Below, one piece after another: positions 13,286 to 60,572 of a stretch of 64,000 nt of DNA. The number at the start of each line of letters is the position of its first letter. Within the stretch, counting starts at the first letter, position 1. The notes beneath the pieces were generated by a model. The model did not search any database. It saw only the letters and a program-made list of their open reading frames with translations, and was not told where the DNA came from. This DNA comes from Apophysomyces variabilis (lineage: Eukaryota; Mucoromycota; Mucoromycetes; Mucorales; Mucoraceae), in NCBI GenBank assembly GCA_002749535.1, contig MZZL01000403.1, positions 706,209 through 770,208 on the forward strand. Reading direction: 5' to 3'. Both the position numbers and the translations under genes were made by a program.

Positions 13286-16069
13286 ATGGCCCTTCGAGAT
13301 ACCTTTATTGGCAAGCTAGCAGAATTTAATATTACCCTGGAAGAGGAAACGGTCGAGTATCTATCTGAAATTTTGCAAGATTTGCAATTGAGCGACCTTC
13401 GAGAGTCGACAGAAACGTTTCTTATCGATGCCAACACTAGTACGGAGACGATCCAGCAATTTTACGAATCAATTGCCAAGACGGCTGGGACCCAAGGCCA
13501 AGAAAAAGCAAAGGAAGATCCTCGCGAACCCAAGAAACTACAAAAGTCGCGGTCAGGAGGCTCGTCGGGTGACACCGAACCGCAATCCAAAGGCAGTACG
13601 AGTGTTCGAAAGTCTGCCGCTCGACGGACACGCCGGGCCAAGAAAGCGGAAGGTCAGCAGCGACAAACTGGCCAGGACGAATCGGAGGAACCGGATATCG
13701 TAGCCATCTCTCAGCAGAGTCGATTTCATCTGGAGACCTTGGAGACGCTAAGCACCGAAATCGATCTTCGAGACGTGCAACTTTCGGTGAACCAAGTGGA
13801 CCTATTGGTGGACGCTAAACTCAAGCTGAAGAGTGGCACCCGTTATGGTCTTGTTGGTCAGAATGGGGTTGGAAAGACAGGTAAGCAAAGACGAAAAACA
13901 AACGCTGTGATCTTTGTCTATTTGTTATTCAACACGGATTTGTTTTATTAGTGTTGATGAAATGTATGGCAGACGGTTTGCTGATCGGTTTGCCCAAAAA
14001 TGTCAACATTCTTCATATTGCGCAACTGCAGATCCAAGACGAAAACAAGAGTGTACTTGACGAAGTCTTGTCGGCTGATAAACGCAGTATGACTATTTTG
14101 CGTGAAGGAAAGAGTAAGATTGGCAAACCATCTTTTTTTTTTGTTGTCGTTTCTTTTGAACCAAACTCTCATTGTAAAATGATTTTTGTTTATCCGTATA
14201 TTTAGTGCTTCAAGAGGCTCAAGGCCAAAAGTTGGAGGACACTGAAGGACTCTATCGGGTAGTTTACCAGATTCTGGTGTCGCGTGCCCGTGATCGTCTG
14301 GATGAAGCAAATAAATTGGCAACACGTCGCTCTGGTACCCGTGGACATGAAGCCAGACAAGAGCTGATAAAACAAGAAAAGGAGGTGGCAGAGATCTTAG
14401 CCAAAACCAGCGCTGAAGTGGTGAATCAAGAAGTAGCCAATCAGGTCGTGGCCGAAGTCTTTGAACGCCTGGAGCTGGTGGACGAGGAAGAACTTAGGGT
14501 CAGAGCCCAAAAGATTTTACGTGGCGTGGGCTTTACAGAAGAACAGCTTCAGGCCAGTGTTTCTACCTTTTCGGGTGGTTGGCGTATGAAGATAGCCTTG
14601 GCCAAGTCTTTGTTCGTGGAGCCTGACGTCTTGCTATTGGACGAACCGAGTACGTAAATGCAAATGCGTCCTCACCTCAGATATGCTGAGCCCTGTGTTT
14701 TCGCTCCTTCTTTCTACCTATTCTAGCCAACCATTTGGACCTGCCTGCTATTCTGTGGCTTCAGGAATACTTATGTGCGATGGACAATGGGACGACCCTG
14801 GTGGTGGTATCTCACGATCGTGCATTTTTGAATGCTGTGACCGAGGAAACGATCATTTTCCGGGACCAGAAACTTAAGTACCACGCAGGAAACTATGAGG
14901 ACTGGGAAAAGAATACTGAGGAGCAACGTATACGGAAACAGGCTTTGCTGGATGTAAAGTATCAAAGACAACATGCGTCCCTTGGTGAAAGGAAAAATGA
15001 CGAACTTTTTGAAGCTAATTGTCAATGTCTTATTCTATAGGCTCAAGAGAGACGTAAGAAGAGCATCATGGCGAGTATACAGTATAATATACAACAAGCC
15101 AAGTCAACAGGGGATGAAAAAAGATTAGGACAAGTAGCTTCTCGGAAAAAGGTGAGGAAAAAGAAATAGAAACAGCGTTAAGAAAGATGTTGAATGCATT
15201 AACATGTTGTCCCGTCGTTTTGTCTTTAGAAACTTGATCGGCTAGGCATGGAGAAAATGGAAGATGGTCGGCGCTTCAGACTAAAATACCGTATTGGCTG
15301 GCATGATACCATGCGCGATCAGATTGTGGTCGAACAAGCTGTCAAAACGGCAGCCATCAAGATTGCTGATCCTCCCCCATTGCGTTACAATGGACCTCAT
15401 CTGCTTGGCCTGAAAGATGTCTCCTTCGGTTACGATAAATCAAAGAAGATCTTAGACCGAGTATCTCTAGATATTGAACCATCATCGAGAATTGCTTTCC
15501 TGGGCGGCAATGGCTGCGGCAAGACCACGCTATTGAATCTGTTGACAAGACAAATGCAACCCCAATCAGGCGAGGTGTATCAGCATCCGTTGCTTCGCAT
15601 AGGATACTTTTCGCAACACATTGTCGACCAACTGCCGATGGATATGACACCTGTGGAGGCAATGATGCAGCAGTTTCCAGATCTGAGTGAGCACGACTGC
15701 CGCGCTCACTTTGGTACGCTTGGAATCGGATCCATCGTGACGAGACCTATTGCCGGCCTAAGCGGTGGTCAGCGTAGTCGTGTTGCATTCGCCTTGATGC
15801 TCTACCGCTCGCCCCATGTAATGGTACTGGACGAAATCACGAACCATCTGGATATGGGAACCGTTGAAAATCTCGTCGAAGCGTTAGCTGGCTATTCCGG
15901 TGCCTTGATCTTGGTCAGCCACGACGTCTGGTTTTTGAAACAGTTATTAAGCGAAGACGACGACACTCATCAAATGTTCGTTGTGAAGAATGGCCAGGTA
16001 ACGCCTTGGAGAAAGAGCATGGACGACTATGTGGCCTCAGTCTTGCGACAAGTCAAGAAAAATATGTAG
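13286..16069 (+). CDS. ABC-F family ATPase (two nucleotide-binding domains, no membrane part)
   Basis: ABC-F proteins act on ribosomes in translation or ribosome assembly. Six exons (13286-13880, 13952-14113, 14206-14649, 14727-14953, 15041-15151, 15230-16069) give 792 residues. A 200-residue N-terminal region is charged and low-complexity. NBD1 has Walker A GLVGQNGVGKT, signature STFSGGWRMKIALAKSLF and Walker B LLLDEPTNHLD, split by an intron inside DEPT. NBD2 has LGGNGCGKTTLLNLLTRQ, AGLSGGQRSRVAFALMLY and VMVLDEITNHLDMGT, where the near-universal Pro after DE is Ile. The linker is long, basic and helical (YQILVSRARDRLDEANKLAT). No membrane segment is present. The gene resembles the Gcn20/Arb1/ABCF1 group; exact orthology is not decided here. 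Confidence 0.9.
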
Positions 16070-16480: not shown

Positions 16481-19400
16481 CTACATGACAAGTCGTATTA
16501 ATCTTTGCGAGTTGGGTGAGCTCATAGATCGAATAATATCTTTGATTTGATTCGCTAACTCCGTCGATTTCACAAAGTGGGTTCGGATATGGTGCCTAGA
16601 TACAATATTCTGTTAGCATACCTATAACATAAGCGTGTTTTTAGAGCGACGTACAAAAAGTCAAACACTTGTTCTAGCGCTTGCGTGGACCATCCATCTT
16701 TCATATCCATGTGTGTTGTCACTTGTTTCACCATATGCATCAACTCAATTAAAAACTATACAAGACCTGTTAGTCATCTTTAGAGCTAGATTATAGTGTT
16801 TTCTTACATCAGCATCGGTAATATCAAGCTTCTCTATGCGATGAAGAGCTGGACCGATCAAGGCGCAAACGTACAATAGCTGGACATCGGTCTTCATCTT
16901 ACCGGATGTGCGTAGCAACTGAAGATACTCTAGGAATACATAAAACGCATCTAGGCTAGAATAATGCAAAATACTGTGTAGTAGGGTGAGGAAACTGTTA
17001 GGGGCGTTTGTGCTATAGTTATGAAGGTTAAAGGTGTAGTCATTGAAAATATATGGGAAGACCATCGCTTTGCGAAAACGGACACTCATAGAGTCTTTAA
17101 GAAGGGCGGTATTAGTGAGGTCGGGAAGCGACTGTGACATAATATAGCGTCCATTGGTACGTTTGGGAACACCGCATCGAATCTACGCAGATATATCTTA
17201 ATCGTATGTATGCTGATCGGTAAACTTACCAGTCGACACGGCTCAGACACTTCAAGTAGATGCGGATCTGTCATGATCAAATTGTTAAGCTGCTGCCATA
17301 TAGGTCGCATAAAATAGTCTGAGGGTAGGGACGAGATGAGTAGCCCTATGGCGTGGATAGTCAGGGCGGATACGCCGACGTGATGTGATTCACGAAGCAG
17401 TGCCATATCTAATATGTACTTGACAATGGTTGCTGGTGGCACAGGTGTAAGCATGATCTCCAACGTGGCGATCGAAATCCCTTCCACAGCTGGACTGCCA
17501 ATTTCTCGAAAATGGCGCTCAGGAAGGTTAGGTTTCGTGCTTGGTCCGCATCTCTGGGGATTAAGACCTAATTAGTCTATGAGTAAGCGCCTCTTACATT
17601 TAGGTGACTTACTTGCTGCTAGTTTATGAATAACGCGTTCAAAATAATTAGCATCAAATACACTGCCATCCATATCGTCGTTCTGAGAATATTGGATGGC
17701 CTCAGGTGCAATGTCGTATTGATCAAAATCTAGTTCTTTGAATTAGCTCTACTCAGCAAAGCCGTTGGGTCTTGTTTTACCTAAGAGACGCAAAATTCTC
17801 TTGCAAATACGCGAATCTTGCAATGCAAGGGATGGATTGTAATAAAGGAAAAGACCGCACACAGAAGAAAGCGGGTATTGATGATAGCGGAATAGGCGTC
17901 CATAGCGGTCCAAAACTTGTATAAGCAAATCGCTTTGATCGTACTCAATCAATCGACTGATAAGCAGTTCGAACATTGAGACAAAGTCGCTAATAACGTT
18001 CGTGAGGTAGGTCGGCATAGCCGTCTGAAGCGGAGGTTCTATAACCGGTCTTGTCTGTTCGTTGCTATCCATGGCAAACGCTTCAAACTCTCTGTACTCT
18101 GGAAACTGATCCAAGAATTGCATCAGCTTTTCATGAAAATCCTCTTCAGCCCAGTGTCGAGAATTAAAGCTTAAGGACTCCCAGCTTTCCACACGAACAA
18201 AGAAATAAGGTGACTCAAATAGTAGGTATCGTACAAAAACAAAAGCTTTCCTTGAGCGTTCTGCCGAACCAGCTCCTTTCAAAAGTGCAGCAAGAACATG
18301 ATTGAAATCGAGCCATTGGTGCTTTCGTATCATGATATCTAGCAGATACAAGGGCTATACAGCTTATTAGCTCTCATTCACTTAGCAACTTACTTACCAA
18401 ATCAGGATTGTTTGGTGGATACTCCATATTCAACACGAAGTCAATAAAATCTATCACATTGGTGGCCATTTTTGAGGGAGGGATCAGCAACAACAACTTC
18501 CGAACCGCTGCAAAAAAGGTGTTAGATATTAATGCTAGACATTTTCATGTGTTACACTAACAAGGCATATGGAACCCATCCATCGAATTACTCATGACAG
18601 CAAGGACCCAAATGATACACAGCAAACTTGACTGATTTTCAGGTATCGTGAAATATGCGATTAAAGTGCGCTGATGGTGTTCGTTTGGACCCTGCAATAA
18701 GTATGTTGAATAGGCCGGGTTGGTGGTAAGCAGTTGTTGGATTTTGGTGGGGTTTACGGATGGTCTCAATGGGATCGTTTGATTAGGAGAATTAGAATCG
18801 ACGTAGAACGACCGCACAGCTTCTGGGAAATATTGTATCGATTCTTCGGACCATTCTAGCTTGTAATCATAGAGACTGGCCAGGACCCGATGGATCTGTT
18901 CAGTCTTGAGGTCAGCTTGCCCTCTCGTCTTAATCAAGCGACAGATGCTTTGAACCATTGCGCGTGCAAGCATTTCCGATTCAGCGAACCAAACAGGCTT
19001 TTCGCGATTAGGATCATCTAGAGATCTCAGGACTTTAACATCGATTTGCATTCTCTATTTGTGCAAAATGTGAGATAACACTAATGGGCTTGCAATACTT
19101 ACTATCACGTTAAAAACAAATGCCTCTAGTACATGATAGACTTGCCGATGCTCAAGATGCGAGATTGAATATCTAGTATAGTGTAAAAGTCCCGAAGACA
19201 ACGGCGAATATGTGAGAATTGTTAGGGTAATATGTATGTATGTTACAAAGGTATTCATAGAGTACTAGAAAAGGATATTTTAAAAAGCGAATAAATCGGT
19301 AGTTCATCAGCTGCAACACGGTATGTAGCCATCGCATCGTTTGATCAGGTAACTGTGCTGTATCTGAGGAGCGTTCATCTGCGTGCTTCTTAATCATTTT

Positions 19401-40136: not shown

Positions 40137-41378
40137 GAGTTCATTCACCAATTCTCGGTGTCTGTGGAAGTGTCAAAGCCAAGTTCACTCTTTGCCCTTG
40201 TACTTCCTTGTTTATACCTGTCCTAGATAACTCTTCAATGAACTGTAAACGTTACATTTGTGCTAACTACAGCTGATGGCTTGCTATGGAATAAACGTTC
40301 ACTAGGTATACACGGATGGTTTTTTGTTGGGTTCATAAGTAAGATGCTGCATGGAGGCCAAGCGAATAGAGCAGAAACATAAAAAGCAGCGTACGGTCCA
40401 TATGTGCGGTAGCAGTGGCCCAACTTATGATTCCGTTGACCGCGCTTTTTTTTCTTTCGTTTTTGTTGGCTCAAAGATAAGCATATCAGCAAATAGATTT
40501 AACCTGGTGAAATCTTAACCATTCTATAAAAGTAAGAAAGAGGCCGATGCGATAAAAATGCGGCAGATGCATGAAATCCCAGAGTTGAAAAGAGTGATAC
40601 AAGGAAGATCTGATAAATTATGACGCCGACCGATTGACCAATAAAACAACGTTTCATAGCTTACTTATCTTATCTATTCCTTTGTGAAACAGTTTAAGTA
40701 GGACCTTGCTGTTTGTTTACTAGATCATTTGTTGGTATACCATGACTTGCTTTCACTTGACCAATGTTTTCTGAAACTTCTTTATGTCATCTATGACAAG
40801 AAGCAGAAGAATGGCCATATTACGAAACGGTACAAATTGGGGACGTGGCTTCCTCAATTTGGGAGTGGAGGTAAATCGGCCCTGACTAAGCACAAAACCA
40901 GTTTGCTCGGCCATTGTGCCACCAGCAAAATAGAAAAAATGCAACTCAGCTGTCGGAGTGAATGGCACACCATCGGCGGACCGCCGAGTATACGCTTCTT
41001 TCTTTTCTATTGGATATGAGTTGTGAATAAGACATAACGTAGTGATGAAGAGGAGACGAGATATGGAAAGAAACGGTTGTGTTAATTGGTGACAAAGGAT
41101 CAGATAAAAGCCGAATGCAATAAAAGTGGGGGGTGGGGCGTAGAGGGTGACATTGTTTGTCCTACTTTGCAAGGGTACGTGTAAAAGAGAGAAGAAGAAA
41201 GGGGGGTGGAGCTGAGATATCAGATTGACCTTATAAAGAAATGCCGTGCGGGGCCATGCGGGACGAATGACGATTTGGCAGTCTAATCTGATCTTTTATA
41301 AACAGTACTCGTTATCCTTTTTCCGTTCTCTCGTTCATTTCCTTTTTCGCCCTCTTTTCTTTTTCTCGGTTTCCCTCC
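40137..41378. promoter_or_regulatory. Mitoferrin promoter and upstream intergenic DNA
   Basis: 1.2 kb with no supported gene. Near the mitoferrin start there are G-rich tracts at 41126-41139 and 41201-41210, a TATAAA at 41297-41302 about 77 bp before the ATG, and a long pyrimidine stretch (41315-41375) just before the start codon. Together these look like a strong core promoter. Confidence 0.5.
41297..41302 (+). promoter_or_regulatory. TATA box of the mitoferrin gene
   Basis: TATAAA 77 bp upstream of the ATG at 41379, followed by a CT-rich initiator-like stretch. The position is typical for a fungal TATA box with a short leader. Confidence 0.5.
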
Positions 41379-42461
41379 ATGGCTGAAGAATACGATTACG
41401 AATCGCTTGGTCCATCCTCTTCCTTAACCCAGAACGCTATAGCCGGTGCTCTTGCCGGTATTGCCGAACACTGTGCCATTTATCCTATGGATAGTATCAA
41501 GGTATGTACAACAAGAGATATTCCCACCACGGTAGTATATATTTATTTGATTTTATTTCCTTGGATACAGACACGAATGCAAGTGATTCAGACAGCAAGG
41601 CCGCCAGTTCTTGCAGCTGCCATGCCACATGCCTCTGTGATCGTACAATCTCCAGCTTTCAAGTCATTCCGAGCAACCACTGGCAACCTATGGCGAGGTG
41701 TTCAGTCCGTCATACTGGGTGCAGGACCTGCTCATGCTTTGTATTTTACGACTTATGAAGCTTCAAAGGAAGCGTTTGGAGCAAATAGAGCAGGACATCA
41801 TGTTTTTGCAACAGCCGCTGCAGGTGCATGTGCTACGCTTGCGCACGATACATTGATGAACCCATTTGATGGTAAAGCATATAACATTTGGAAAAAAGAG
41901 TTTGTTGGATACTAAACAAGTGAAATTGCGTTCATTCTAGTGGTGAAGCAACGAATGCAACTATGCGATTGCACGTACAAATCAGTACGTGAATGCACCC
42001 GCAACGTTTATCGAAAAGAGGGTATCAAAGCCTTCTATATTTCGTTGCCAACTACTTTGGCAATCTCTGTACCCTTCCAGTCCGTCCAATTTGCCACGTA
42101 TGAATACTTTCGAAAAGTCTTTAACCCCTCTGGTGAATATCATCCCAAGACACACGTTGTTGCAGGTGCTTTGGCTGGAATGGTCGCTTCTTCCATAACC
42201 ACACCTCTGGACGTTGTAAAGACACTGCTGCAGACACGAGGCAATAGCAGTGACCCTCAGATTCGGAACGCAGGAGGTTTACGGGACGCTGTAAGAATCA
42301 TTCACGAACGTTATGGTATCCGCGGATTTTTCAGAGGATTCAAACCGAGGGTATTGACACATATGCCGAGTGCAGCCATTAGTTGGAGTGTGTATGAATA
42401 CTTCAAATGGTTTATTGGCGTTCAGGAAGCGACGAGGGACCAAGAGCTTTTGCGTCTATAA
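41379..42461 (+). CDS. MRS4: Mitoferrin (Mrs3/Mrs4), mitochondrial iron carrier
   Basis: Mitochondrial carrier family protein importing iron for haem and Fe-S synthesis. Exons 41379-41501, 41571-41871 and 41941-42461 give 314 residues. The three carrier repeats have signatures IYPMDSIKTRMQVIQ, LMNPFDVVKQRMQLCD and ITTPLDVVKTLLQTRG. Each repeat begins with a membrane helix (AIAGALAGIAEHCAIYP, VFATAAAGACATLAHDT, VVAGALAGMVASSITTP). LWRGVQSVILGAGPAHALYF and ISVPFQSVQFATYEY fit the Mrs3/4 subgroup. Its C-terminus (SAAISWSVYEYFKWF) is also typical. Introns sit at the ends of the signature regions, between PMDSIK and TRMQ and between PFD and VVK. Identification is secure at family level and good for the iron subgroup. 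Confidence 0.9.
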
Positions 42462-45046: not shown

Positions 45047-46485
45047 ATGAATGACACAAGCACTACGGTGAACAAATCAGCCATCGAGCACATAGAAGCG
45101 GATTTATCCAATTGGTTTAGACTAAGGCAATCCCCATTGCCCACGAACCGAGCGAATCGTCCTCATGCAGTTCCTCATTTTCTAGGAATCGAAAAACATC
45201 AGCAAAGGATTTAGAGCGTTTTGTACAGGCTGAAACGAAATACATTCGCGTTCATAACCTTCCAGAACACGTTAAACAATACAACTCCATCTATGTGGGA
45301 AGCAAACCATCGGACGATTGGGTCACCATCGGCATTGTGGATCGGATAGTGTGCCGATCCGACTTCTGGGTTGCCCGTCTAACCAACATGAGAGGCGCCT
45401 TCTTTTATACTTTCGCGTTCGGGCGCGCATACAAGGATTATTGTCATGTTCTCCATCCCGGCTCTGTTATTGCTATATATAAACCTACTATTCTTTTGTC
45501 TAAACAGAGCAACGCGGCGGTCGGTCTGCATGTCAACTATCTTCAACAATTAAAGATCATTGGCGATAGCCGTGACCTGGTTCGATGTGAAGCCTACATC
45601 AACGAAGAAACACAATGCGATGAAATGGTTGACGGGTATAGAAAAAAAATTAATATGATTTCGGGTTCATCTTGAGACCAATTCACAAAAATCAACTAGG
45701 CGAGAAGGCGAATATTGTGATAGGCACATTGCTACAGCATACAAGTCTTCCAGATTCGAACGGACTGAGCTGACGTCTGGGTAAATAATCAGTGGAAAGG
45801 GACAATTTGTTTACACTAATGTCTTGATCCATTCAGGAACAGTGCTGTGGAAGTACGATGGGCACAAGTACGCCAAACAGAAAAAGGCGTAAGATACGAG
45901 GAAGCTGCTCATACGAAAATTCAAAGACGCGATTATACATATACAATCCATGGAAAGGGGATCTACTCATCAGACGGTCGTCATTTAAGTGCTAAACGCG
46001 AAGCAACTAAACCGACCGAACAGGACAAAGTGAATCTCAGGTAGAAAACTAGAAGAAAATGAAGCAAAGAATTTCATTCTCACAATTCATGATTTGTTTA
46101 TGTGATGGCTATTTATATAGCAAATTTTTACAAGGTCGAACGGACCCAGGCGCAGAAATGCTTCGAAAAATCAATGGAATTGAGGAAGCAGCTCCAAGTA
46201 CGTACTGACAAATTTGACATCATATAAGAGTACTGAAAACACTGCTACATAGAATGCGCACTTTCTTTAGAAGCAATGTCAAAGATGGGATTAAGTAGCA
46301 AACATATTTTGACAGACAAGGAGGAAGATGCAAAGGTATGAAAGATTTGACATGCGGTTTAGCAAACGTGATTGATGGACATTTACTGTTAATAGAAACG
46401 CGCCATTGCTGCTTTATTGAATAGCAATGCAAAGGAGGAAAGAGAGACGCCAAAGGGAAAAAAACCGCGCTATGTATATCTCTAG
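45047..46485 (+). CDS. MCM10: MCM10, DNA replication initiation factor (core form)
   Basis: MCM10 activates the CMG helicase at origins. Exons 45047-45067, 45121-45635, 45700-45780, 45837-46040, 46121-46197, 46253-46335 and 46396-46485 give 356 residues. The OB-fold region reads DDWVTIGIVDRIVCRSDFWV, ARLTNMRGAFFYTFAFGRAY and HVLHPGSVIAIYKPTILLS. The MCM10 zinc finger is CEAYINEETQCDEMVDGREG then EYCDRHIATAYKSSRFERTE, with the CCCH spacing of the family. YTIHGKGIYSSDGRHLSAKR matches the post-finger segment that leads to the RTDPGAEMLRK region. Yeast orthologues exceed 550 residues; here the N- and C-terminal extensions are short. The start in the 21-nt first exon (MNDTSTT) is inferred. Confidence 0.83.
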
Positions 46486-46578: not shown

Positions 46579-48805
46579 ATGTACATTTTGCAACCGTACC
46601 CAAGTACGTCGACCTCTATATACACGCATGCATCCGACCAGTATCCAGGCGCCCATATCACTGGTATTCCTAGTCATCTACTTCAGCATGTTCGCTCAGC
46701 GCTGCCCGCCATACAAGAGGCTATTGCACCTCATCTTCCGGTCGAAGTGATTCCATTATGCAATCAGTTATTTGATACCTGGGTATTGGCATCCATCGAA
46801 GAAGCTGAATACGCTCACCATCGATATCCACGCAGCTATTATCCTAGTCTACATGACAACAAACAATTCACACATGCACAGCATCGCGGACTCATGCCTT
46901 CGCGTTTTTCACGATGGATACTACGTCCTTTCAAAAAGAAGACAGCACATGTTGCCCCGCTGGATCCGACGCCGAAAAGAAATATTTCCGAACCTTTGAC
47001 TAGTCGCAGTTCTAGCAGCAGTAACAGTGAATGTTCCTGTCTCCTCACAGACGAGACAGCTGCGGCTGCCCATACAGCGAAGCTATCTCGGCAAAAATTC
47101 TCCGGTATTTTTGCTAAGCTGGGAAAGAAGATGAAAACAGCCGTCAGTCGTCGTCAGATCGACCAAGAAAACGCCAGCTGGACTCGGTTTGATCTGTCAC
47201 ACAAACTCGGGGTGGATGCTGCAACTCAAACGGTGGAGGAAACCCGACCACAGGAACCGCCCCTAGTTCCTGTGATAAGGCGGGAAAAGGAGGACGTCTG
47301 TTCGACTGAGAGCAGTTACAATTCTGCTGACGAGGAACCCGCCAGTAGTGTCTATGATGATGGTAGAGAAGATGCTTGTAGTAGTGATAAGGAACAAATG
47401 GAGGAAGATGGGGACAATGGTGAAGTGGTCAACCACGACACGGAGGACGTCATGTCACTGCCTAGGATCAATGGACTAGATGGCCATCTTATTCAGTCTG
47501 TCGTAGGCATTGAGAACAGGAAGGATAGGCAAACGTGCGAAGTGGAAGTAGAAGGAGAAAGGAAAATGGTGCGCAATGAGACGGGCAGTAATCTCCGCAG
47601 TGAGGCAGCAGGACTGCAGCAGATGGATTCCATCCAGGATTTGTTAAGCTTGAATTATCCTTATTTCCAGTTTACACCTTCTGTCCATGAGACTACTTGT
47701 AGCATCAGTAAAAGCAATCAACACGAGAAACAACTACGAAAACAACAACAACAGCAGATGATATTTCAATGGCAGGAACCAAATACACGTCAATTGCAAT
47801 TCACCCCTAATTTCAGAACGCCCTGGAGCCCTCCGGCAGGTGCAGCTCCGGCAGTTCTCCCCCCACGACCCATCAAAACAAGCAAGACGGACATGGATAT
47901 GAATTTCGACGAACCCGTACCGTTTCCAAAGATCGGTTTAGGTCGACAAAACAAAGAAAATGCACGCAATACAGACAAAATCCAGTTGGAAGACCTCAAT
48001 CAATACTGCCGATCGGTTTCTTCTCTATCTGTTTCACAGTTTGAACAGTCTTTAGTACCAAGTTCGTTTGCACTGCAGAACGTTATCCTCAAGTAAGTTG
48101 ACTCTATCTTGGCATGACGCGAAAGAGTCAATGTATCCTTCTTCTCATTGCTGGTTAGGGTCACCTGCGTACTCTATGATATCATTTGCCGTAACCATGC
48201 ACAGCGAGAATTCAACTTCGACAGTGTCTTCAGCATCAGTCCGTTTATTATGGATTGTAAACATGACATCTACTCCGAATTACCAGTGACAACATGGAAC
48301 GATGTCTATAACCAACTGACCTATGTCTTTACACATGGCCTGGTAAGTTACATATCATAAGAATAAGAAGGAGAGGACGGCGATATTGTGAACCGCTGGT
48401 AAATCACCTGCTTACCTTTTCCTTTCTATCTCTGAAGCTCACCACAGAGCACGCTATTATTACTCTTATTTATGTTGAGCGCATGCTTAAACGGTCGGGC
48501 CAAAAGTTATGCGATGTTAGTTGGCGTTTGATACTACTTGCAGCAATCTTGGTGGCTGTGAAAACCTGGGATGATTGTGCGGTATTTAACGCAGATTTTT
48601 CACACATCTTTTTTGAAGCAGATCTCAGTACAATGTAAGTTGGGTGATATTCTGTTTATTTGAAGACAGCTGTGGCTCAATCGGTTCTCTCGCACACAGC
48701 AATTATATTGAAAGGCGGTTCCTAGCTGCCATTGATTGGAATGTTACCATACGCAGCTCGTCCTTTGCCGAACGCTACTTCACATTACGTGAAATGGAAG
48801 AATAA
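46579..48805 (+). CDS. Cyclin-domain protein (cyclin Y/Pcl-like) with long disordered N-terminus
   Basis: Exons 46579-48092, 48159-48342, 48438-48634 and 48700-48805 give 666 residues. The cyclin box is C-terminal: TTWNDVYNQLTYVFTHGLLT, TEHAIITLIYVERMLKRSGQ, DVSWRLILLAAILVAVKTWD, DCAVFNADFSHIF and YIERRFLAAIDWNVTIRSSS. AxKxWDD-x-x-x-x-N-x-DF is typical of cyclin Y and Pcl-type cyclins, which partner CDK14/Pho85 kinases. The first 500 residues are one exon, mostly Ser/Glu/Gln-rich, with a phosphorylatable look and a basic patch (FAKLGKKMKTAVSRRQI). Known cyclin Y proteins are about half as long. The partner kinase is unknown. Confidence 0.8.
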
Positions 48806-51336: not shown

Positions 51337-52462
51337 CTATGGCGAGTTCGGTCTGGATATCTCAGAAAATTCGCTGTGCGAGTTCGCACCGTCTTCTTCT
51401 TCTTCCTTACTGTTTTGACAGTCTCCATCTTTTTCGATTTCTTCATCCCTTTTTTCATCAGCGTGCTTTTTTTCTTCGCCATTATCTTCTTTTTCCTGAT
51501 CATCCGTCTGGATTCAATATTAGTTAGATAATCATCACCACAATAGTAAATTTGGTAATGTTTTTGATTTTTAGCATACTTTGACATCATCGTCTTCGTT
51601 AAGCTCTCTGACGAGTATCTCCATGAAATGAATTGGCGCGTGCTGTAATCGATGACATAATTTGGTTTTCACCGTTTCCTTGTAGATGTTTGCCGTAGAA
51701 ATATGGTTGGTGCCACACCAGATGGTAAAAGTATCCGATGCTAAACCAAAACCGTCCTGGATCTAACATTGACAGAAAATGGATATGCCGCCCATGCATT
51801 CAAAGTCCAAGTACCTTACTGCATAACTCTCTGTAACTTGTATGGCCGTCGTTGAAAAGAATATAGCGCGTCTTATTGCTTCCTTCAGCAGATGCTTGGA
51901 CAACTAATGGGACATCGAGAAATACTCTCTCTCCATCCAAGCTTATTTCTCGTAACAACTCATTTAATACTTTTTCCTGCAAGTGATTGTTCATGAATTC
52001 GAGGGTATGCGTTAGCCTTAGGCATTCCTGCGTTTTTTCATCCAGTTTTTGCCGGAGTTCCTTGCAAATTTGATCTGCATCATTTAATTTTTGTGTCAAG
52101 TCATCCACTTTTCGGGTGTTTAGCTGAAGAATACATTGATGCTGACATTTGATTATATCCAGGTTCAACTGAATAAGCTTGGTCTTTATAATGTCTCTAT
52201 CCTCCGTATATAGAAAATTCGCTTTGGCCAGGTAGCATTGGTGTTCGTTGACCTCTTCCGTCAGTCTGGCAAGTGATATTCCAACATGTTCGCCAAATTC
52301 GGAACTGTTATCTAGCTGCGCCTTCACGTCTTGAAACGACTTTTCCGTGACGTTAAGTGAGCGCAAAAATATGTCGACCACCTAAAGCACGTTGGAACTC
52401 GCACCCTTTACGCAGTTTGCACTTACAGTTGATCTGGGTACATCGTAACTTTTATACGGCAT
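51337..52462 (-). CDS. PB1-domain coiled-coil protein, family copy A (acidic tail)
   Basis: Four phase-0 exons (52427-52462, 51815-52381, 51580-51762, 51337-51507) give 318 residues. Exon 1 codes only MPYKSYDVPRST. Exon 2 is helical with coiled-coil heptads (VDDLTQKLNDADQICKELRQ, KLDEKTQECLRLTHTLEFMN) and ends in the first strands of a PB1-like fold, TRYILFNDGHTSYRELCSK. After the intron the fold continues IQDGFGLASDTFTIWCGTNH; it is more divergent than copy C and lacks a clear acidic OPCA motif. Exon 4 is a highly acidic/basic tail (EKEDNGEEKKHADEKRDEEI) ending SEISRPNSP. Exon layout and the helix-then-PB1 order match copies B and C nearby. No catalytic motif. Function unknown; scaffold-type interactions are inferred from PB1. 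Confidence 0.68.
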
Positions 52463-53072
52463 GAAGCCTGTTTGGTTTGCATTTTGCGAGAATGAGGAAA
52501 TAAAGCGGGCTTTTATAGGCGTATGTCGACCAAAAACGATTATGATAAACAAGCTGCTTAGCCTGTTAACAGGCCAAGCCCATTGACCTGAATGATTCCT
52601 CTTTTGGCTGTCTTCATAGATAACAATTTATGCACATGACAGACCTCTTGAACCACAACAAAATAACAAACACTAGCAGGTTGCATCCATTCCGGTATTC
52701 TATCCGAGTTTTATGGAGAACTTCATTAGCTATAGCACCTGTTGTGGTGTACACAATTAATTATGACTTATGCACTTCAATCAGCCCATGGATTGTTTGA
52801 TTCTGAAAACGACGTGGCGTATATGCCAAGTTGAAAAATCGCAAGCATTTGACACATAATAAACCATCTGCAACGCTACTTCCAATGTTGCTCATAAAGT
52901 TGTTATCCGTTTATGCCTCAGACTAATGCATGATTATTTCCTAGTTGAATGGCATCAACCTATATCATAACGCATGTGTCTACACTTCGGATGTTTCAGA
53001 ATGAAATTAGGCTGATCACACTACATCAATTAGAAAGGAGGATAATTTCTCATAGATCTTCTTCTTAACTTG
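52463..53072. other. Intergenic region between PB1 copies A and B
   Basis: 610 bp, AT-rich, containing the copy A promoter and the copy B 3' flank. A CTTTTATAGGC at 52510-52520 reads GCCTATAAAAG on the minus strand, a TATA-like site about 50 bp upstream of the copy A start. Nothing else was seen. Confidence 0.5.
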
Positions 53073-54696
53073 TTACTCAATGTTCACTATGCGAACATAC
53101 GTGGAAACGAGGCAACAATCATTCACTAAAAACGGGCCCTTTCCATCCCAGACCTTGCCCATTTGTCGTCTCATATAAAAATTTTCATAACCCCATCCGG
53201 GGTGATCCGCGCAAAATTCATCATATGTATCTATGTACAATGAGGGCACAGTGCTAAGGCAGCGGAACTCACCTATATGATAAAAGTTTGCTGGATTATC
53301 AGGATTTGACAGCAAGAACGCATACTGTGTGCCTACTTTGGAAACCGCCTTTCCAAGATTATGAACTTCCAAGAAAATAGAGATTTCGCTATCTCCATCA
53401 GCGCCATTAGGATATACTTTGAGTCTCCTAGCTACCTGTAAGAACCATGTGATTAATGAAACCAGACTATAACTCACCACTCAAAACCGCCTACGTCAAA
53501 AAGTTCGCTGATTATACATCTTGCATGTGTACTCCAGTTTTCTATGCACCAATGGTATACAGTAAAATCGAGTTTTTGGTAACAATGTCGAGGGATCATT
53601 TTGTGTGAGATATTATTTACTAAGATTCCATGTCATTAAGTTAACTTTTGTGGGTATGTATATACTGTAGATGTAACACTTACAAAGGTCTATATGAGTC
53701 GTCATGTTGTATTGATTTAGCTGATCACAAGCCCGAGCGATGCCTGATACCCTTTCATTTTCGATAACCGGCGTTATTTTAAAGCAATTGGTTTCGTTGA
53801 GAGAGTCTTTGATTTCCGCATCGTCGAAAGGTCGAACGATGAAAGCGCCTGAGGCATGATACTGCGTTGGTATTGTGAATTCCACTTTGTTCTGTTCATA
53901 ACAGATGCAACAAACCTCAGGGCTCGTTTGGCAGCTCTTTGTTTGAACCTTTATATCTAGTATGTTTATCATCGTAACTGATGTTTGCACAACGGTAACT
54001 TTGTCGATAGCATTCTGGAAATGTTCCGGCTTGGAAAGATCGGAACTCCTACCAGTTTCGAGATCTTGACACGACAAATGGAAATCGTCCGACTTTAGTC
54101 CAAAAGTCTCGCGTACCTAACAGGCGCATTCCCCTATGAGGCAACGTTCCTTTCATCAAGCAGGATACCTTTTTACGCAATTCTTTGTAGGATGGATATC
54201 CGTTATTAAATACGATGCATCTAACTTGGGGGTTGGGATCTCTCATATAAATGTCCGCTATGAGCGGAACATCCAAGGGGACGACACGGATGCCCATCCC
54301 TTGTTCTGAATCCTTCCTTGCTGAGAATTTCTTGGTTACTTCTTTGATTTTTTCCTTTTTTTCCTTGAATCTTTGGAAATGTAACCATTGTGAAAGCTCT
54401 GACCTGAAATCAGCGTAGGAGCGCATAAACCTCTCTTTATCTGTTTCTGACAGGAATGGCATGTTCTCCATGTGAGCAAGATGATCGTCACTTTGTTTTA
54501 TCAAAAGGATAGCTGCGATAAAAGTGGCGTTCTCTTCTTGAGAAGCTGCCCCTTTTAGTTCTCTGAAACGACTTTGCATCACTTTTAATATGTGTGCAAA
54601 CATATCCGCTATCTAATACGGAGATGCTTCATCTGTTATGTCTTGTACTTTCAACATGACATGACCCACCATCTCGCTTTCCGAAACGCTCAACAT
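53073..54696 (-). CDS. PB1 + MATH fusion protein, family copy B
   Basis: Exons 54670-54696, 54169-54612, 53684-54116, 53478-53619 and about 53073-53427, the last possibly split by a small intron near 53227-53273. Total about 460 residues. Exon 1 codes MLSVSESEM. Exon 2 opens IADMFAHILKVMQSRFRELK, nearly the same as copy C, has a helical charged middle, then PB1: QVRCIVFNNGYPSYKELRKK, joined by the phase-0 intron to VRETFGLKSDDFHLSCQDLE. A Cys-containing linker (CQTSPEVCCICYEQNKVEFT) follows. The C-terminus is a MATH/TRAF fold: DFTVYHWCIENWSTHARCII, LFDVGGFEWRLKVYPNGADG, ISIFLEVHNLGKAVSK, HPGWGYENFYMR and PFLVNDCCLVSTYVRIV. Coiled coil plus MATH recalls TRAF proteins, but PB1 between them is unusual. 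Function unknown. Confidence 0.7.
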
Positions 54697-55259
54697 CTTT
54701 GACTCGACGTGTATCCTGTGTTAGCAAAAGGTAGAGTTAACTTTGACAGATAACGTAGCCATTTTGAACGAGTTTTTCTTACTCGTGTCAAACAGACAGG
54801 TGTGTAAAGTTGTAAAAAAAGAGAAAAGAAAAGACAATAATGACATGGATGGGCTAAAAAAGTTAGGGCGCAAATTCCTGCTAGCACTCAACCTTTTTTT
54901 TTTTTGAGTCCTGATTACAACAACTCTTCTTGTGATATCCTGAAAGAATCTTCTTTCCCACCGCAGAAGGTTACTCTTTGTTTGTGGCATCAAACCTCTG
55001 CCCTACTTAAATCTTTATGCCTTTTTAATTCAATTTCTCCTTTTTAGCGAAGGAAAAGTCTCTCCGGAAGTTATCTAGTGTAAAAGATCTCAGGGACAAA
55101 AAGGCTAAAATATATCGATCATAGCGGACCTGAATGTTTGACACGGCGTCGAACAGTAGCAGCAGCTTTCTTTGTTTTCTGCTATTCCAAATTTAAAACA
55201 TTGGCTATCCTCTCTACCAAATTCTGTTTCCGGATGGTACTATATCATGTTATATAGGT
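54697..55259. other. Intergenic region upstream of copy B
   Basis: 560 bp with the copy B promoter and the left flank of the Tc1-type element. A poly-T tract lies at 54894-54905. The minus-strand frame at 54721-54993 has no family content. Confidence 0.45.
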
Positions 55260-56329
55260 TACAGTGCTTCCAACAAGCAAAATCACAACCAATCAAAATT
55301 AATATCGCTTGCCAATGAAAATTGATGGATCCTCATGCATTTACCATTCAAATAAAGCTGCGCATGAATATTCTTGTCAAATGAATTTTGAAAATGTCTT
55401 TCTTTCATTGCATATATCAAGTCCCAAGGTGAAAAAGGTGAGACTGGTAGTGATGCAGAAGGCGTTATATTTTCACATCATGTGAAGTGCGGAGCTGAAC
55501 CAATTTTAGGGAGAATGTTGTTTACCTTTTTTGCTTCCTTCTCTTCCATGTTGCTGCCCAAAATATTCTTTCTTCCTATGACCATGTAGTTCAACCTGAA
55601 TAGCATCAAGGGAAAAAAATTGCGCCAGACTTTGAAATAAGCTGAATAGTATGCTCATTATGGAACCGAAGATGCAGCAACCTAAAATAAGTATATCTCA
55701 TTTGGATAATCCATTGGCAAAGAAAAGCATCATGGCAAGTCTACACATGGACCCTGCCCTATGCCGGAGAAAGTTCTGGCTGACTCGTCAGCATCGTCTG
55801 TCCCAGCCGGGAGTGGGAAGCGACCTTCTTCCTCTTTGTTAGATCTTACCGTTTTTTTATGCGCATAATGACTTCAAGAGACACCAATGTGTCTATCAAC
55901 ATTCATATTCCTTACTTGAGCTATCCTAGGTGATTATCAAAAGCAAAATTAGACAGCACATACTTTTGCATGCAACGAAGCCTAATCCCCCTCCCGCTTT
56001 ATATCCTTACACTACGTCCGATCTTATTCCTTGTTAGCTCGTTCTAACTTCACCCTTCCCGAATGCTCGCAATAGATCTGTGCGCTTTGCGCTTTGCGCG
56101 TTGGTCATGCGTAATACATGGGATTGGGCAAACTGAACGGTTGATGGTTATGAAAATGTTTTGATCGCACAATAATTTTATTGGGAATCCGATAACGCGG
56201 ATAAGCAAACTATTCACCTGGAAAAAGTGTACATACCCGCGTTTACCAGATTCCAAAATAAAAAAAAGCTGTAATATGTTAGTAATCTGAGTACTGCTTA
56301 CCCGGTTTTAATGAAGTCATATGTAGCCA

Positions 56330-57603
56330 TTACATGGGGACTTTGTTTCGACATTTATCCCAACACTTGTAAGAATGGGAAACAAAGCCTTTGAAGTGAC
56401 TTTTGTCTACACTTTGACAAGCTTCCGTGATTCTTTTTGATAAAATGTCTTCATGCAAAGTTCTATGGCGCTTAATCTTACTCTTTGCCACTGCCCAGAA
56501 TTGTTCTATTGGATTAAGCTCGGGAGAGTAAGTAGGAAGGTATCCTCAATATTAAACATACTTTTTTATGTTTTCATGCGTATGAATGGGAGCATTGTCC
56601 ATCACTATGTAGTGTCCTTTCATATGAGGATGCCTGTCCATTTCATTGAGAGTCGTTTTTAAGAAACTAATGTAGTGCCCTGTTACAGTTCCTGAACTTA
56701 TATATCCATCAGCCTTTCTCTTCTTAGCAGACCTTGTTTTTTTTTCACGCCAATTGTGATTAAACCTGCAGCAGAGATAGCGCCCAATATAGATGTTGTG
56801 TCTGCTCTCGTTGTAGGTCGGGTAACGATAGCACGAGTATCTTTTGTCCACCAAGCTCTTGACCGTTTCATATTGATATCAAAAGCAAACTCGTCAAGAA
56901 ACACGCAATTTGTTAGAAAGTTCATGTCTGTATTTTCCCACTTACAAACGCAATTATACCGCTCCTCAATCTTTGCCGGGCTGTTTCTTTCGATAGAATG
57001 GAAATCTGCTTTTTTCAACGAAAGGTTGCATTCACTTCTCATAAAGTTATAAACAGTGCTGCCAGAAACTTTAAGATCATTGAAACGTTTCAATAGATGC
57101 TCGGTTACTTCAACAACAGCAGCAGAGGGATTAGCATCAATGAAGTTGACAACAGCTCTTTTATACTCATCGGTAAGAATACACTTACGACCTACTCTGT
57201 TACAGCTGTCAAAGATGTTGTCAGGGCACATACTATACTGCTTTGCCCATCTCTGCGCTGTTCGAATGTGTATATCCAACTACTTCGCTGCAGCTGACGC
57301 ACTCATACACTTTTCAATCTTCAGACCGAAAAATCTGGCCTCATCCTGGACTGTATAGCGAACATAATCTCTTTTTGGTTTTGCCTCCTTCATATGGATG
57401 TCTTCATCTTTTGCCTTTTCTATCAGCATCGGGAAATTAAGAGAAGACTCGTCAGAAGTCGCATTTTTCAAGTAATCAGTGTGAGTGGCAATAGTTTCAA
57501 CAACAAACTCATTCTGATCGACAATGTACTCCATGGGCTCAGGATCACCATTCTTATCAACGACATTTCCATGTTCATCTTCATATAAAAATAATCTATT
57601 CAC
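56330..57603 (-). pseudogene. Tc1/IS630-type DDE transposase, inactivated
   Basis: The N-terminal part is acidic. The helix-turn-helix region is LDIHIRTAQRWAKQYSMCPD with VGRKCILTDEYKRAVVNFID. The first catalytic Asp is in NCVFLDEFAFDINMKRSRAW, the second in GHYIVMDNAPIHTHENIKK, and the Glu in GYLPTYSPELNPIEQFWAVA, giving a complete DDE set. At least four lesions interrupt it: an in-frame TAG just before LDIHIRT (near 57281), a frameshift at the nine-T run 56737-56745, and TAA and TGA between KKYV and GYLP (near 56549-56556). The stop after NKVPM is at 56330-56332. It is therefore a relic. The start is unclear because the open frame begins at a GTG. Confidence 0.8.
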
Positions 57604-58645
57604 GGTAACTTATAAAAAATCGAAAACAAAACACGAAGAAAAAAATGCGTCTCTCCTCTGTTTATATTTTTTGAGTGCCAAGAAATACTGTTTATTGAAC
57701 AATTTTTTACGCTACTCTAAATCAATTTTGCGCCCATGCAAGGATCAAGTTTGCGCTAAAAAGAATATAAATAAGCGTCATTAGTAAATGGATTATGCGG
57801 GAAATATATTTTACTTACCTCAACTTGGTCCTCCAGTGGACACAAAATTCATTCGAGCAGCGTAAAAAAATGTTCATGGTTAGTAAATGGAAGGATAGCT
57901 TGACATTTTTTTTACTTACCCCGGAAGGGTAATCCTACCCAAAGGTGAGGGCCGGTATAATGTAACGCACAGCAGAGGACTTGAAGCGATGCAACGCCTG
58001 GCGAGGACTTGGAAGCAGAAGATAATGAATAACACTGTGCATAAACAGACAACATTTATTTTTCACTTACCTAGTGGAGTGCAGGGAGCTTACTCACACA
58101 ACCAAGGTGGTTTGGGACAGAGGTCATGCAGGCTAAAGGATACAGAAGACGGACATCAGTCATTCTGTACATATGATCAATGTGAAATACATACCGGGGA
58201 TGTTTTGGATAACAGAGCCAAGGAGCAGAAAAGGTGTTGTCCCTTCGCGCTTTAATAGTACGTGATTACTGAAACCAAAAATCACAGCCATGGATTAGAA
58301 AATCGATGGATGTCTTATGGATGACAACAATTCAGAGATAAGACAGCAATTGTCCTAAGAGTAAATGGATTCAGTCTGATAGAAGGTCTCGAACAGAATG
58401 GAACATCTGTAGAGGAAATAGACCCTCTTCGTTCGTTTCTGTACGTCCTTGATGCTATCATATCCGTTTCTGTCAGTTATGGTATTAGAAACTGTCAGGG
58501 CAATGTGCCCCAATTCCGGTTCTGCTCAATTGTATTGCCTTATATTCCACTTAATATTCCCTGCATGTAGTTATGTTCTACTTTTCTTCTATTGTATCTT
58601 AAACTTTGTCTATCAGGGAGTCACAAAAGATTGGATTGCCACGGA
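57604..58645. other. Interior of the Tc1-type element, exon-like but unassigned
   Basis: On the minus strand three near-consensus splice donors GGTAAGT occur close together (around 58065-58071, 57916-57923 and 57812-57819), each downstream of a GC-richer block of 50-120 bp. This looks like a chain of small exons or leader exons upstream of the transposase, but no protein family could be read from them. Confidence 0.35.
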
Positions 58646-58912
58646 TTGAACGGTTATTATCTTGTCATGGATAATGCGCCCATCCATACACCAGTCAAGG
58701 TTAAGTAGTTGGTCGAAGAAACAGGATACAAATGTCTCTATCTCCGTCTCTACTCTCCCTTTCTTAACCCAATAAAAAGGTTTTGGGCCAAAGTGAAGGC
58801 TGGGGTAAGAAGGGAGCCCTTACAAGTTGACGATAACCTTCAAGAGCGTATATGTTCAAGCAGCGCGAAAAGTAAAGCGCTCAGACTGTCAAGAATGGAT
58901 CAGACACTCTGA
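58646..58912 (+). pseudogene. Tc1-type transposase C-terminal relic
   Basis: The plus-strand frame reads LNGYYLVMDNAPIHTPVKVK, then a stop, then LVEETGYKCLYLRLYSPFLN and PIKRFWAKVKAGVRREPLQV. The second catalytic Asp region is intact. The usual catalytic Glu in the N-P-I-E-x-F-W motif is Lys (NPIKRFW), so it could not be active. It is in the opposite orientation to the 56.3-57.6 kb transposase and represents a separate, older copy. Confidence 0.72.
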
Positions 58913-59492
58913 GAGCTTTTTCGTTAGGTGCAAAAATAGAGAACCACTTCTTTAAATAAATTCGTCTTGCTGTGGTTTGGAACAAACTATCTCAGTAACT
59001 AGTGAATATAGACACGACTGTACGCAAAGAAGGATAGTCTGACCGCAAATATTTTTATCCAATCATGCAAAAGCATTTTTTGGATTCCACAAAAACTTGA
59101 ATCCCAGTCTGCAAATAAAAAAAAATATAGAAAAACACGCAGACAAATAGGAAAAACAGGTAAATACATGGAGCAAGCGACTTGGTTTCTAAAAATATGA
59201 CATTGATTTTGATTGGACAGTGACATCGACTTTAGTTAGCACGCGACGTCAATTTTTCATTGGCAACCGATGTTAATTTTGGATGGCACTGTATCTTAAC
59301 AGAAAGGTGTACAAAACATAAAGGGACTAGTTACTTGATTTGTTGGCAATGGTTTTTTGTTTAAATATCCAAGAATTCAAGTACTTGCGGCGCAGCTTTG
59401 ACAGCATAACGTGGTTACTGTGATGAGGATACAGATTTCCCAAGTAAAGTTTTCGACTGCTCCAGATATATAACACATACTCCCTGCTGTTC
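58913..59492. other. Right end of the Tc1-type element and copy C 3' flank
   Basis: Contains the right inverted terminus (about 59215-59291) and then 200 bp of flank downstream of the copy C stop. No gene is supported here. Confidence 0.5.
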
Positions 59493-60572
59493 TTACTGCT
59501 TCTCATTGAGGGATATCTTCTGTTCATTTGTCTGAGACTCCAGTGTAGAATATTCCGAAAACTCATCGCTGTCCTCTTCAACTGTTTCTGTTAACTGCGG
59601 CGTTGACTCTTCTTTCGGGCTCAGGTCATCAGGCGCAGCACCGGATTTGACATCACCGGAGTGAATTTCGGGACGAGCGATCTGGGTGCTTTCTTCCTGC
59701 ATGGGTTGTTATTTCCATACTGCTGTTCCCAAGTCATTGTAGATACCTTTGGTTTGTCTCCTTGCGTGAGTGTGTTTATAAAAAGGTTCAAAGTAAACAT
59801 CCCACTGTCATCTTTTTTCGAAGCATTTAGATCCTCAAGAGCTTTCCTATAATCATCTTCACTGGATATCGTCAAGACATCACTACTTTCCGCATATGCA
59901 TATGTCAAATCAAATTCGTCGGATCCCAACTTGAACTTGTTGCGGACCTGCAAGATGATTTTGATTGAGACCACTATCTTCTCAAGCTATGGTAGGTACC
60001 TCTTCGCGCAATTCTAGGTATTCAGGATACGCATCATTATAGACTAGCGAGCGAAGCTGTTTTGCATGATTCATTACGTTGATAAGCACCACTGTCGGGA
60101 AATCTGAAGATGTATTACGGAAATGGTCTTGCAAAGCATCAAGCTTTTTTCGTAATAGAATATCCACAAGTTCTTCTCGTCGTAAGTTTTGTTCTTGAAG
60201 GTCATATATTTCTTTATCCTTTGCTTGAATATCGCAATTGTATTTGAATTCCAAAAGCTCCAATTTGAATTCAGTGAATATGCGGATCATTCGTTCCCTC
60301 TCCTCCGGAATAAGAAGCTGATGATTTTTCAAGAAGAAGATATGATCGTCCGTATTTGTGAGTAGTACACCAATGGCTACTTTTACGCGAGGATACTGAG
60401 CACTGATGCTATGGAAGTTTTCTTTTACATCTTTCAATCTTGTTTGCATCACTTGCAAAATATGATTGAATACGATTGCTATCTAATAGAGCATTGTATG
60501 CATATACTGGTTAGCCATCTTTGCTACCCCGAGACAGATAGGCAGCACCTTATTGCTACTTGATTTATCCAT
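59493..60572 (-). CDS. PB1-domain coiled-coil protein, family copy C (acidic tail)
   Basis: Four phase-0 exons (60549-60572, 60000-60482, 59747-59947, 59493-59696) give 303 residues. Exon 1 codes MDKSSSNK. Exon 2 begins IAIVFNHILQVMQTRLKDVK, close to copy B, then has helices with a charged coiled-coil stretch (IQAKDKEIYDLQEQNLRREE). The PB1 domain is the clearest of the three: LRSLVYNDAYPEYLELREE, intron, VRNKFKLGSDEFDLTYAYAE, then the acidic OPCA motif SSDVLTISSEDDYRKALEDL and FTLNLFIN. Exon 4 is acidic (KEESTPQLTETVEEDSDEFS) with no fold. Type I PB1 domains bind basic partners, so a second PB1 protein is a plausible partner. Function unknown. Confidence 0.72.

What the first reader, a model, noticed from the sequence alone, without database searches (positions are those of the whole stretch)
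51337..60572. Three PB1 paralogues with a shared gene plan: candidate undescribed family
Copies at 51.3, 53.1 and 59.5 kb, all on the minus strand, share a first coding exon of 8-12 codons, a helical segment with near-identical openings in B and C (HILxVMQxR), and a PB1 fold split by a phase-0 intron at the same point. They differ only in their tails. Local duplication plus tail swapping is what recognition or signalling families show. No named family fits.
Basis: partly seen in the sequence, partly recalled or inferred. Interest (0 to 1): 0.75.

Follow-up and report, generated by a model that had tools for sequence, protein, structure and literature searches.

The report
Fungal PB1–MATH adaptor gene family
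Three neighbouring genes in a mould belong to a family of at least nineteen related gene copies, many of which join a helical segment, a PB1-like domain and a peptide-binding MATH domain; two of these three lack the last part, and the searches made here found no description of such a family.

Summary
The three minus-strand genes are related and look protein-coding; their PB1 intron lies at the same codon (phase 0) in 14 of 14 family copies tested. The family has at least 19 loci on six contigs of this 38.7-Mb fungal genome. The only relatives returned are from the mould Apophysomyces ossiformis; the screen is leaky. A and C end in acidic tails where those copies have an acidic linker. So the tails differ mainly by presence or absence of MATH; loss is simpler than swapping. 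B and C are sisters; A groups elsewhere. An acidic [WFY]xx[LIV] motif, like an Atg8-interacting motif, is in 11 of 14 linkers or tails against 2.5 expected (post hoc), but not in B. My best reading is an oligomeric MATH adaptor, possibly a selective-autophagy receptor; that last step is inference. PB1 contact residues are degenerate in A, B and C, so classical PB1-PB1 binding is not predicted.

The parts
52427..52462 (-). Gene A, exon 1 (12 codons)
   Evidence: ATG to GTAAGT donor, 45-nt intron
51815..52381 (-). Gene A, exon 2: helical segment and first half of PB1-like domain
   Evidence: hold-out family profile E 1e-24
51580..51762 (-). Gene A, exon 3: second half of PB1-like domain
   Evidence: hold-out profile E 9e-5
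51337..51507 (-). Gene A, exon 4: acidic tail ending SHSEFSEISRPNSP and stop; no MATH found downstream
   Evidence: A. ossiformis P0007 matches this end in 13 of 14 residues
54670..54696 (-). Gene B, exon 1 (9 codons, weak donor, provisional)
54169..54612 (-). Gene B, exon 2: helical segment and first half of PB1-like domain
   Evidence: hold-out profile E 8e-14
53684..54116 (-). Gene B, exon 3: second half of PB1-like domain and linker (may hold a further intron)
   Evidence: hold-out profile E 1.3e-4; donor GTAAGT
53478..53619 (-). Gene B, exon 4: start of MATH domain (YHWCIENW...FDVGGFEW)
   Evidence: MATH hold-out profile E 1.9e-9; splice ends checked
53273..53427 (-). Gene B, exon 5: middle of MATH domain
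   Evidence: MATH hold-out profile E 3e-16 for the ORF 53076-53480; splice ends checked
53073..53230 (-). Gene B, exon 6: end of MATH domain and stop; the 42-nt intron before it is open in frame and inferred from family copies
   Evidence: spliced MATH: Pfam MATH_2 61.7 bits, cut-off 32
60528..60572 (-). Gene C, exon 1 (15 codons, or 8 ending at 60549; donor uncertain)
60000..60482 (-). Gene C, exon 2: helical segment and first half of PB1 domain
   Evidence: hold-out profile E 1.6e-11; P0005 of A. ossiformis identical at 199 of 208 helical+PB1 residues compared
59747..59947 (-). Gene C, exon 3: second half of PB1 domain
   Evidence: Pfam PB1 35.0 bits on the spliced protein
59493..59696 (-). 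Gene C, exon 4: acidic tail and stop; no MATH found downstream
   Evidence: ending agrees with P0005
51337..51381 (-). AIM-like motif of A (F-S-E-I) at the C-terminus, with stop
59541..59579 (-). Motif region of C (EEDSDEFSEYSTL; only Y-S-T-L fits the AIM core)
   Evidence: identical in P0005, 13 of 13 residues

Best explanation
Shown by sequence: A, B and C belong to a fungal family whose longest members have a short first exon, a helical segment, a PB1-like domain split by a phase-0 intron, an acidic linker and a C-terminal MATH domain. B has all of it; A and C end after an acidic tail. Inferred: the proteins are oligomeric adaptors. The helical segment, and perhaps the PB1-like fold, holds several copies together; MATH grips peptide segments of client proteins, as in SPOP and USP7; and the acidic linker's [WFY]xx[LIV] motif, where present, recruits Atg8, so that clients are delivered to autophagy. 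MATH-less members such as A and C would join or cap the assembly without binding clients. The confidence is for an oligomeric MATH adaptor family; the Atg8 step alone I put at 0.25.
For: Hold-out profile and shared intron. MATH_2 in B at 61.7 bits and in 5 of 5 long models at E <= 1; their profile matches SPOP (6e-12) and USP7 (about 1e-5) MATH domains. MATH hits beside nine of 19 copies, counting B. Pfam PB1 in 6 of 12 helical+PB1 members at E <= 1, best 1.5e-8. The seven best solved-structure rows at the PB1 position (E 0.03-0.42) are PB1 domains of NBR1, TFG, PKC zeta, PKC iota and Bem1; two weaker rows there (E 1.2, 4.1) are not. dN/dS 0.17-0.38 in four overlapping paralogue pairs. C is identical to its A. 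ossiformis counterpart at 199 of 208 helical+PB1 residues compared. The acidic [WFY]xx[LIV] motif is in 11 of 14 linkers or tails against 2.5 expected, 0 of 5000 shuffles as high; in 10 divergent members 7 against 1.74, 0 of 5000. Two Atg8 loci exist in the genome.
Against: B, the only MATH-bearing copy in the window, lacks the motif; C111a fails the acid rule and C111c lacks the motif; C and C115b pass only with another stretch (C reads F-S-E-Y where others have F-x-x-[LIV]). A computed linker alignment put phenylalanine in one column in 8 of 14 rows and did not align the motifs of A, C and C111b with it, so their common origin is read by eye. The motif test was made after the motif was seen, and paralogues are not independent. 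PB1 contacts: in the computed alignment the lysine column is lysine in 0 of 12 members (6 of 7 other PB1 domains of this genome); placing the strand by eye gives K/R in 3 of 12, none of them A, B or C; a full D-x-[DE]-x-[DE] core is in 0 of 12 (7 of 7). A simple heptad test gave p < 0.05 in 1 of 12 helical segments, so a coiled coil rests on weak matches to designed coils (best E 0.005). No ubiquitin-binding domain matched, and a likely NBR1 gene exists elsewhere. dN/dS was not measurable for C111a-C111b, where dS is saturated.
Confidence: 0.5

Rival explanations
1. A SPOP/TRAF-like adaptor of ubiquitin or receptor signalling: MATH binds clients, the helical+PB1 part oligomerises, and a separate ligase or kinase partner acts. 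The linker motif serves something other than Atg8.
For: The closest solved MATH domains are SPOP and USP7; helical segment plus MATH resembles TRAF-type layouts (recalled); PB1 joins kinases in other systems (recalled).
Against: No RING, BTB or protease match in A, B, C (E <= 10) or the five long models (E <= 1), so a partner must be assumed. The AIM-like motif recurs beyond shuffles.
Confidence: 0.25
2. A recognition family (self/non-self, virus or parasite) in which MATH domains read changing ligands and copies turn over by duplication and loss.
For: At least 19 loci, clusters on C111 and C115, stops inside matched frames of several copies; no B counterpart returned from A. ossiformis (a leaky screen).
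Against: dN/dS 0.17-0.38 in MATH and in helical+PB1, with no consistent excess in MATH. C is nearly unchanged between species. Whole-domain averages cannot exclude a few fast sites.
Confidence: 0.12
3. A very divergent branch of NBR1/Atg19 receptors.
For: PB1-like domain, helical segment and AIM-like motif recur. [quoted passage not shown]
Against: The C-terminal domain is MATH by Pfam; no ZZ, FW or UBA match. The genome has a likely NBR1 gene with PB1 and FW matches 1.4 kb apart on contig C54.
Confidence: 0.08
4. A decaying family without function, A and C being truncated remnants.
For: A and C lack MATH; several copies elsewhere have stops inside matched frames (some stops may lie in introns).
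Against: dN/dS well below 1 in the pairs tested. C matches its A. ossiformis counterpart at 199 of 208 residues compared and has the same ending; A's counterpart keeps 13 of 14 C-terminal residues.
Confidence: 0.05

Closest known systems
SPOP and USP7 MATH domains
   Same: MATH domain at profile E 6e-12 (SPOP) and about 1e-5 (USP7); the DWGF stretch of SPOP aligns with GWGY in B (its role in the groove is recalled)
   Different: No BTB or protease domain matched; MATH is C-terminal behind a PB1-like domain
NBR1/p62/Atg19 autophagy receptors
   Same: PB1-like domain, helical segment and, in most copies tested, an AIM-like motif in one chain
   Different: MATH instead of ZZ, FW and UBA; PB1 contact residues degenerate; a likely NBR1 gene is present separately
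Known fungal PB1 families Bem1, Cdc24, Mug70, NoxR
   Same: PB1 domain
   Different: Partner domains named for these families in PMC7051960 (section 9 read) were not matched; PB1 here is split by an intron at a fixed codon in 14 of 14 copies, while several other PB1 domains of this genome match nearly end to end in one open frame
TRAF proteins and plant helical+MATH proteins (recalled)
   Same: Helical segment plus C-terminal MATH
   Different: PB1-like domain and acidic linker in between; no RING matched

Membership tests
PB1 domain (PF00564) | Profile match over the curated cut-off (23.6 bits) | tested here: met
   C 35.0 bits and its counterpart P0005 27.8. A and B gave no match at E <= 10, so they are PB1-like by homology to C; 6 of 12 members match at E <= 1.
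PB1 domain (PF00564) | Contact lysine or acidic D-x-[DE]-x-[DE] core | tested here: not met
   Neither in A, B or C. Lysine column 0 of 12 members as aligned (3 of 12 K/R if placed by eye), full acidic core 0 of 12, against 6 of 7 and 7 of 7 reference PB1s. Definition from PMC7051960 passages.
MATH domain (PF22486) | Profile match over the curated cut-off (32 bits) | tested here: met
   B spliced 61.7 bits. A and C: no MATH found in or behind them.
Selective autophagy receptor (NBR1/p62 type) | Atg8-interacting motif | tested here: inconclusive
   Motif pattern in 11 of 14 linkers or tails, above shuffles, but absent in B; binding untested
Selective autophagy receptor (NBR1/p62 type) | Oligomerisation domain | tested here: inconclusive
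   PB1-like domain with degenerate contacts; heptad test weak
Selective autophagy receptor (NBR1/p62 type) | C-terminal ubiquitin-binding domain (UBA); ZZ and FW of NBR1 | tested here: not met
   No match in A, B, C (E <= 10) or five long models (E <= 1)
MATH-BTB adaptor (SPOP type) | BTB domain behind MATH | tested here: not met
   No BTB match in the five long models; B ends right behind MATH
TRAF | Coiled coil plus MATH, often RING and zinc fingers (recalled) | tested here: inconclusive
   Helical segment and MATH present, no RING or zinc finger matched; a PB1-like domain lies between

The most novel reading that the evidence does not exclude
A lineage-specific expanded family of selective-autophagy receptors that uses MATH domains in place of ubiquitin-binding or FW domains as the cargo reader, with MATH-less members as structural partners: a class of cargo receptor built on PB1-like plus MATH.
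Probability: 0.22. Interest if true: 0.68.

Novelty: new variant of a known kind. Interest (0 to 1): 0.42.

Why it matters
PB1 and MATH are two widespread protein-interaction domains. A search for open-licence papers holding 'PB1 domain', 'MATH domain' and 'fungi' gave 0; 'MATH domain' with 'PB1' gave 11, of which 10 were listed, none concerning this combination by title or opening abstract; 'Apophysomyces' with 'PB1 domain' gave 0. A fungal family that joins the two domains, numbers at least 19 loci and has apparently lost MATH more than once would show how one lineage builds its own adaptor set, and the linker motif gives a directly testable link to autophagy. The probable host genus causes severe human infection (abstracts in the listing), but nothing here ties these genes to disease.

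Tried and rejected
Homologue searches: two profiles gave 4 of 3464 and 3 of 4397 candidates, all A. ossiformis; spliced B gave none at E <= 1 among 2974. The second profile did not return P0003 or P0004, and the B search did not return P0001 or P0002, although these are relatives, so the screen is leaky: 'only Apophysomyces' and 'no B counterpart' are weak negatives. A single-protein structure search with P0005 gave no PB1, its best rows being designed proteins; single-sequence B MATH against solved structures was weak (best E 0.35), unlike the profile. NCBIfam: no match in 5 of 5 models. Paper searches for MATH with Mucoromycota, MATH and BTB with Rhizophagus, and autophagy receptors with Mucor gave 0; listings on MATH/TRAF evolution and on SPOP with autophagy receptors held nothing on this family by title or opening abstract. 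Tail swapping, diversifying selection and classical PB1 head-to-tail binding were considered and not supported. The first A/P0007 identity count contained a parsing error and was redone; for A only one search is used.
Full report
WHAT IS THERE. The window lies in a genome of 38.7 Mb in 126 contigs. All seven proteins returned by the two successful homologue searches are from Apophysomyces ossiformis. Six of the seven have a best partner among 13 models of this genome at 73% to 93% identity; P0001 reaches 58% (C92 was not in that set). The host is thus probably another Apophysomyces; this is inference. Gene A spans 52462-51337, B 54696-53073 and C 60572-59493, all on the minus strand; the spliced models are open and have GT-AG introns.

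CHECK OF HOMOLOGY. BLASTP within those 13 models gives B-C E 1e-19, A-C 6e-9 and A-B 2e-9. A profile built from nine family members outside the window, with A, B and C left out, ranks their second exons first to third and their PB1 second-half exons fourth to sixth among 2113 window ORFs; the next has E 0.55. Those nine had been found with A, B or C as queries, so the test is not fully independent.

GENE PLAN. The intron that splits PB1 is 52 nt and phase 0 in A, B and C. A GT-AG gap lies at the same codon in 14 of 14 copies for which both flanking exons were located (46-77 nt outside the window); C92 was not tested because its upstream exon end was not identified. A short first exon of 7-15 codons can be drawn in 10 of 12 copies, not in C115c or C111a; there was no shuffle control, and several donors are poor. 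For C88b the drawn exon (MSGTYEHRS) agrees with the start of A. ossiformis protein P0004, which others predicted. C's first exon stays uncertain.

CENSUS. Exon-by-exon searches of the own genome give matches at E <= 1e-3 at 19 loci: C89 three (the window), C88 two, C91 one, C92 one, C111 six, C115 six. A fragment on C64, a lone second PB1 exon on C111 at 283 kb and a doubtful stretch on C29 would make up to 22. Several copies have stops in matched frames; some may be introns, some pseudogenes. The tool calls such counts lower bounds.

MATH. The last exons of B, once spliced, are Pfam MATH_2 at 61.7 bits (cut-off 32) and MATH at 28.0 (cut-off 21.2). The largest MATH ORF unspliced scored 30.5, just under the cut-off. 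A MATH profile without B finds B's two MATH ORFs at 3e-16 and 2e-9 among the window ORFs; the next is E 2.9. Searches place MATH exons beside both C88 copies, C91, C92 and four C115 copies: 8 of 16 copies outside the window, 9 of 19 with B. C115b seems to have one by eye; the C115 copy at 74 kb was not examined. None was found at A, C or the six C111 copies. The five long models all match MATH_2 at E <= 1, and their profile matches SPOP and USP7 MATH domains. P0002 of A. ossiformis has MATH_2 at 33.4 bits; P0001, called MATH domain-containing by a source, gave no Pfam MATH match at E <= 0.1.

PB1. Pfam calls PB1 in C at 35.0 bits and in its counterpart P0005 at 27.8; P0003 (22.4) and P0001 (16.3) fall below the cut-off and A and B do not match. 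Of 12 helical+PB1 members 6 match at E <= 1. The seven best solved-structure rows at that position (E 0.03-0.42) are PB1 domains; two weaker rows (E 1.2, 4.1) are not. A profile of the family matches a profile of seven other PB1 domains of this genome with probability 95 over 60 columns (these are 7 of the 8 loci held, of 12 matches; L003 was left out because its match starts at profile position 15). The contact residues are worn. In the computed alignment the lysine column holds proline or serine in 12 of 12; placing the first strand by eye, in register with p62 (recalled), gives K/R in 3 of 12, none of them A, B or C. A complete acidic core is in 0 of 12 (read by eye). Classical head-to-tail PB1 binding is therefore not predicted.

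TAILS. A, C and C111a-c, whose tails were read, end in acidic tails where MATH-bearing copies have an acidic linker. In 11 of 14 linkers or tails there is [WFY]xx[LIV] with an acid within three residues before it, against 2.5 expected in shuffles (0 of 5000 as high); in 10 divergent members 7 against 1.74 (0 of 5000). B, C111a and C111c fail the rule; C111a (EKSGFVEV) fails only on the acid. C passes through Y-S-T-L, since its F-S-E-Y stretch does not fit, and C115b through a different stretch. The computed linker alignment put phenylalanine in one column in 8 of 14 rows and did not bring the motifs of A, C and C111b into it, so the claim that these motifs share an origin is by eye. Between species the end of A is kept in 13 of 14 residues against 30 of 43 in the tail before it (binomial 0.046), and the motif region of C in 13 of 13 against 52 of 63. 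The motif was noticed before it was tested, so this is a lead. That Atg8-interacting motifs follow this pattern is recalled; the make-up of NBR1-type receptors was read in passages of PMC9582228.

EVOLUTION. The tree joins B and C (96/92) and puts A with the C111 group (91/88), with warnings about long branches. The MATH label (C115b counted as bearing it, by eye) needs two changes, which fits two losses, one towards C and one in the A/C111 group, but the root is unknown. The search with B returned nothing; since it also missed P0001 and P0002, this says little beyond the lack of a close annotated counterpart. dN/dS is 0.17-0.38 in four paralogue pairs that share members, with 95% intervals below 1 (lower bounds of 0 arise where dS saturates). 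For the C111 copies, C111a-C111c gave 0.38 and C111a-C111b was saturated. A, B and C themselves were not included.

MECHANISM. Shown: architecture, family and purifying selection in the pairs tested. Inferred: oligomerisation through the helical segment and perhaps the PB1-like fold; peptide binding by MATH; Atg8 recruitment by the linker. The genome has two Atg8 loci and a likely NBR1 gene, with PB1 and FW matches 1.4 kb apart on C54, so the family would add to NBR1 and not replace it.

NOVELTY. A survey of PB1 families (PMC7051960; fungal section read, rest searched by word) names Bem1, Cdc24, Mug70 and NoxR in 12 fungal proteomes, sets aside a p62 relative and a PB1-SAM protein found once each, and contains neither 'MATH' nor 'TRAF' in its main text. 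The paper searches gave no description of this combination; they cover open-licence papers only. I rate it a new variant of a known kind: known domains in an order I found undescribed, with unknown function.

Noticed in passing
window 56330-57279 (-) and 58709-58912 (+): Pieces of a broken DDE transposase (DDE_3 matches) lie between B and C; Tc1/mariner type is recalled. Inverted repeats of 33 nt, 88% complementary, at 55289-55321 and 59254-59286 may be ends of a transposon relic.
   Followed up: partly
own genome C84:123400-123786 and C116:95033-95466: Two further MATH loci without a family helical/PB1 exon found beside them; the C84 frame holds 2 TGA and 2 TAA.
   Followed up: no
own genome C115:20-75 kb and C111:283-297 kb: Two clusters of family copies within about 75 kb and 60 kb of a contig end; subtelomeric placement not tested.
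   Followed up: no
A. ossiformis EC973_001470 / EC973_001471: Counterparts of C and A carry consecutive locus tags, so no gene seems annotated between them where B would lie.
   Followed up: partly
window 1471-2199, 15230-16069, 17749-18354, 41292-42461, 45121-45675, 48312-48638: Other large ORFs match ordinary genes: histidine biosynthesis, ABC transporter, Mediator 23, mitochondrial carrier, MCM10, and a cyclin match just under its cut-off.
   Followed up: partly
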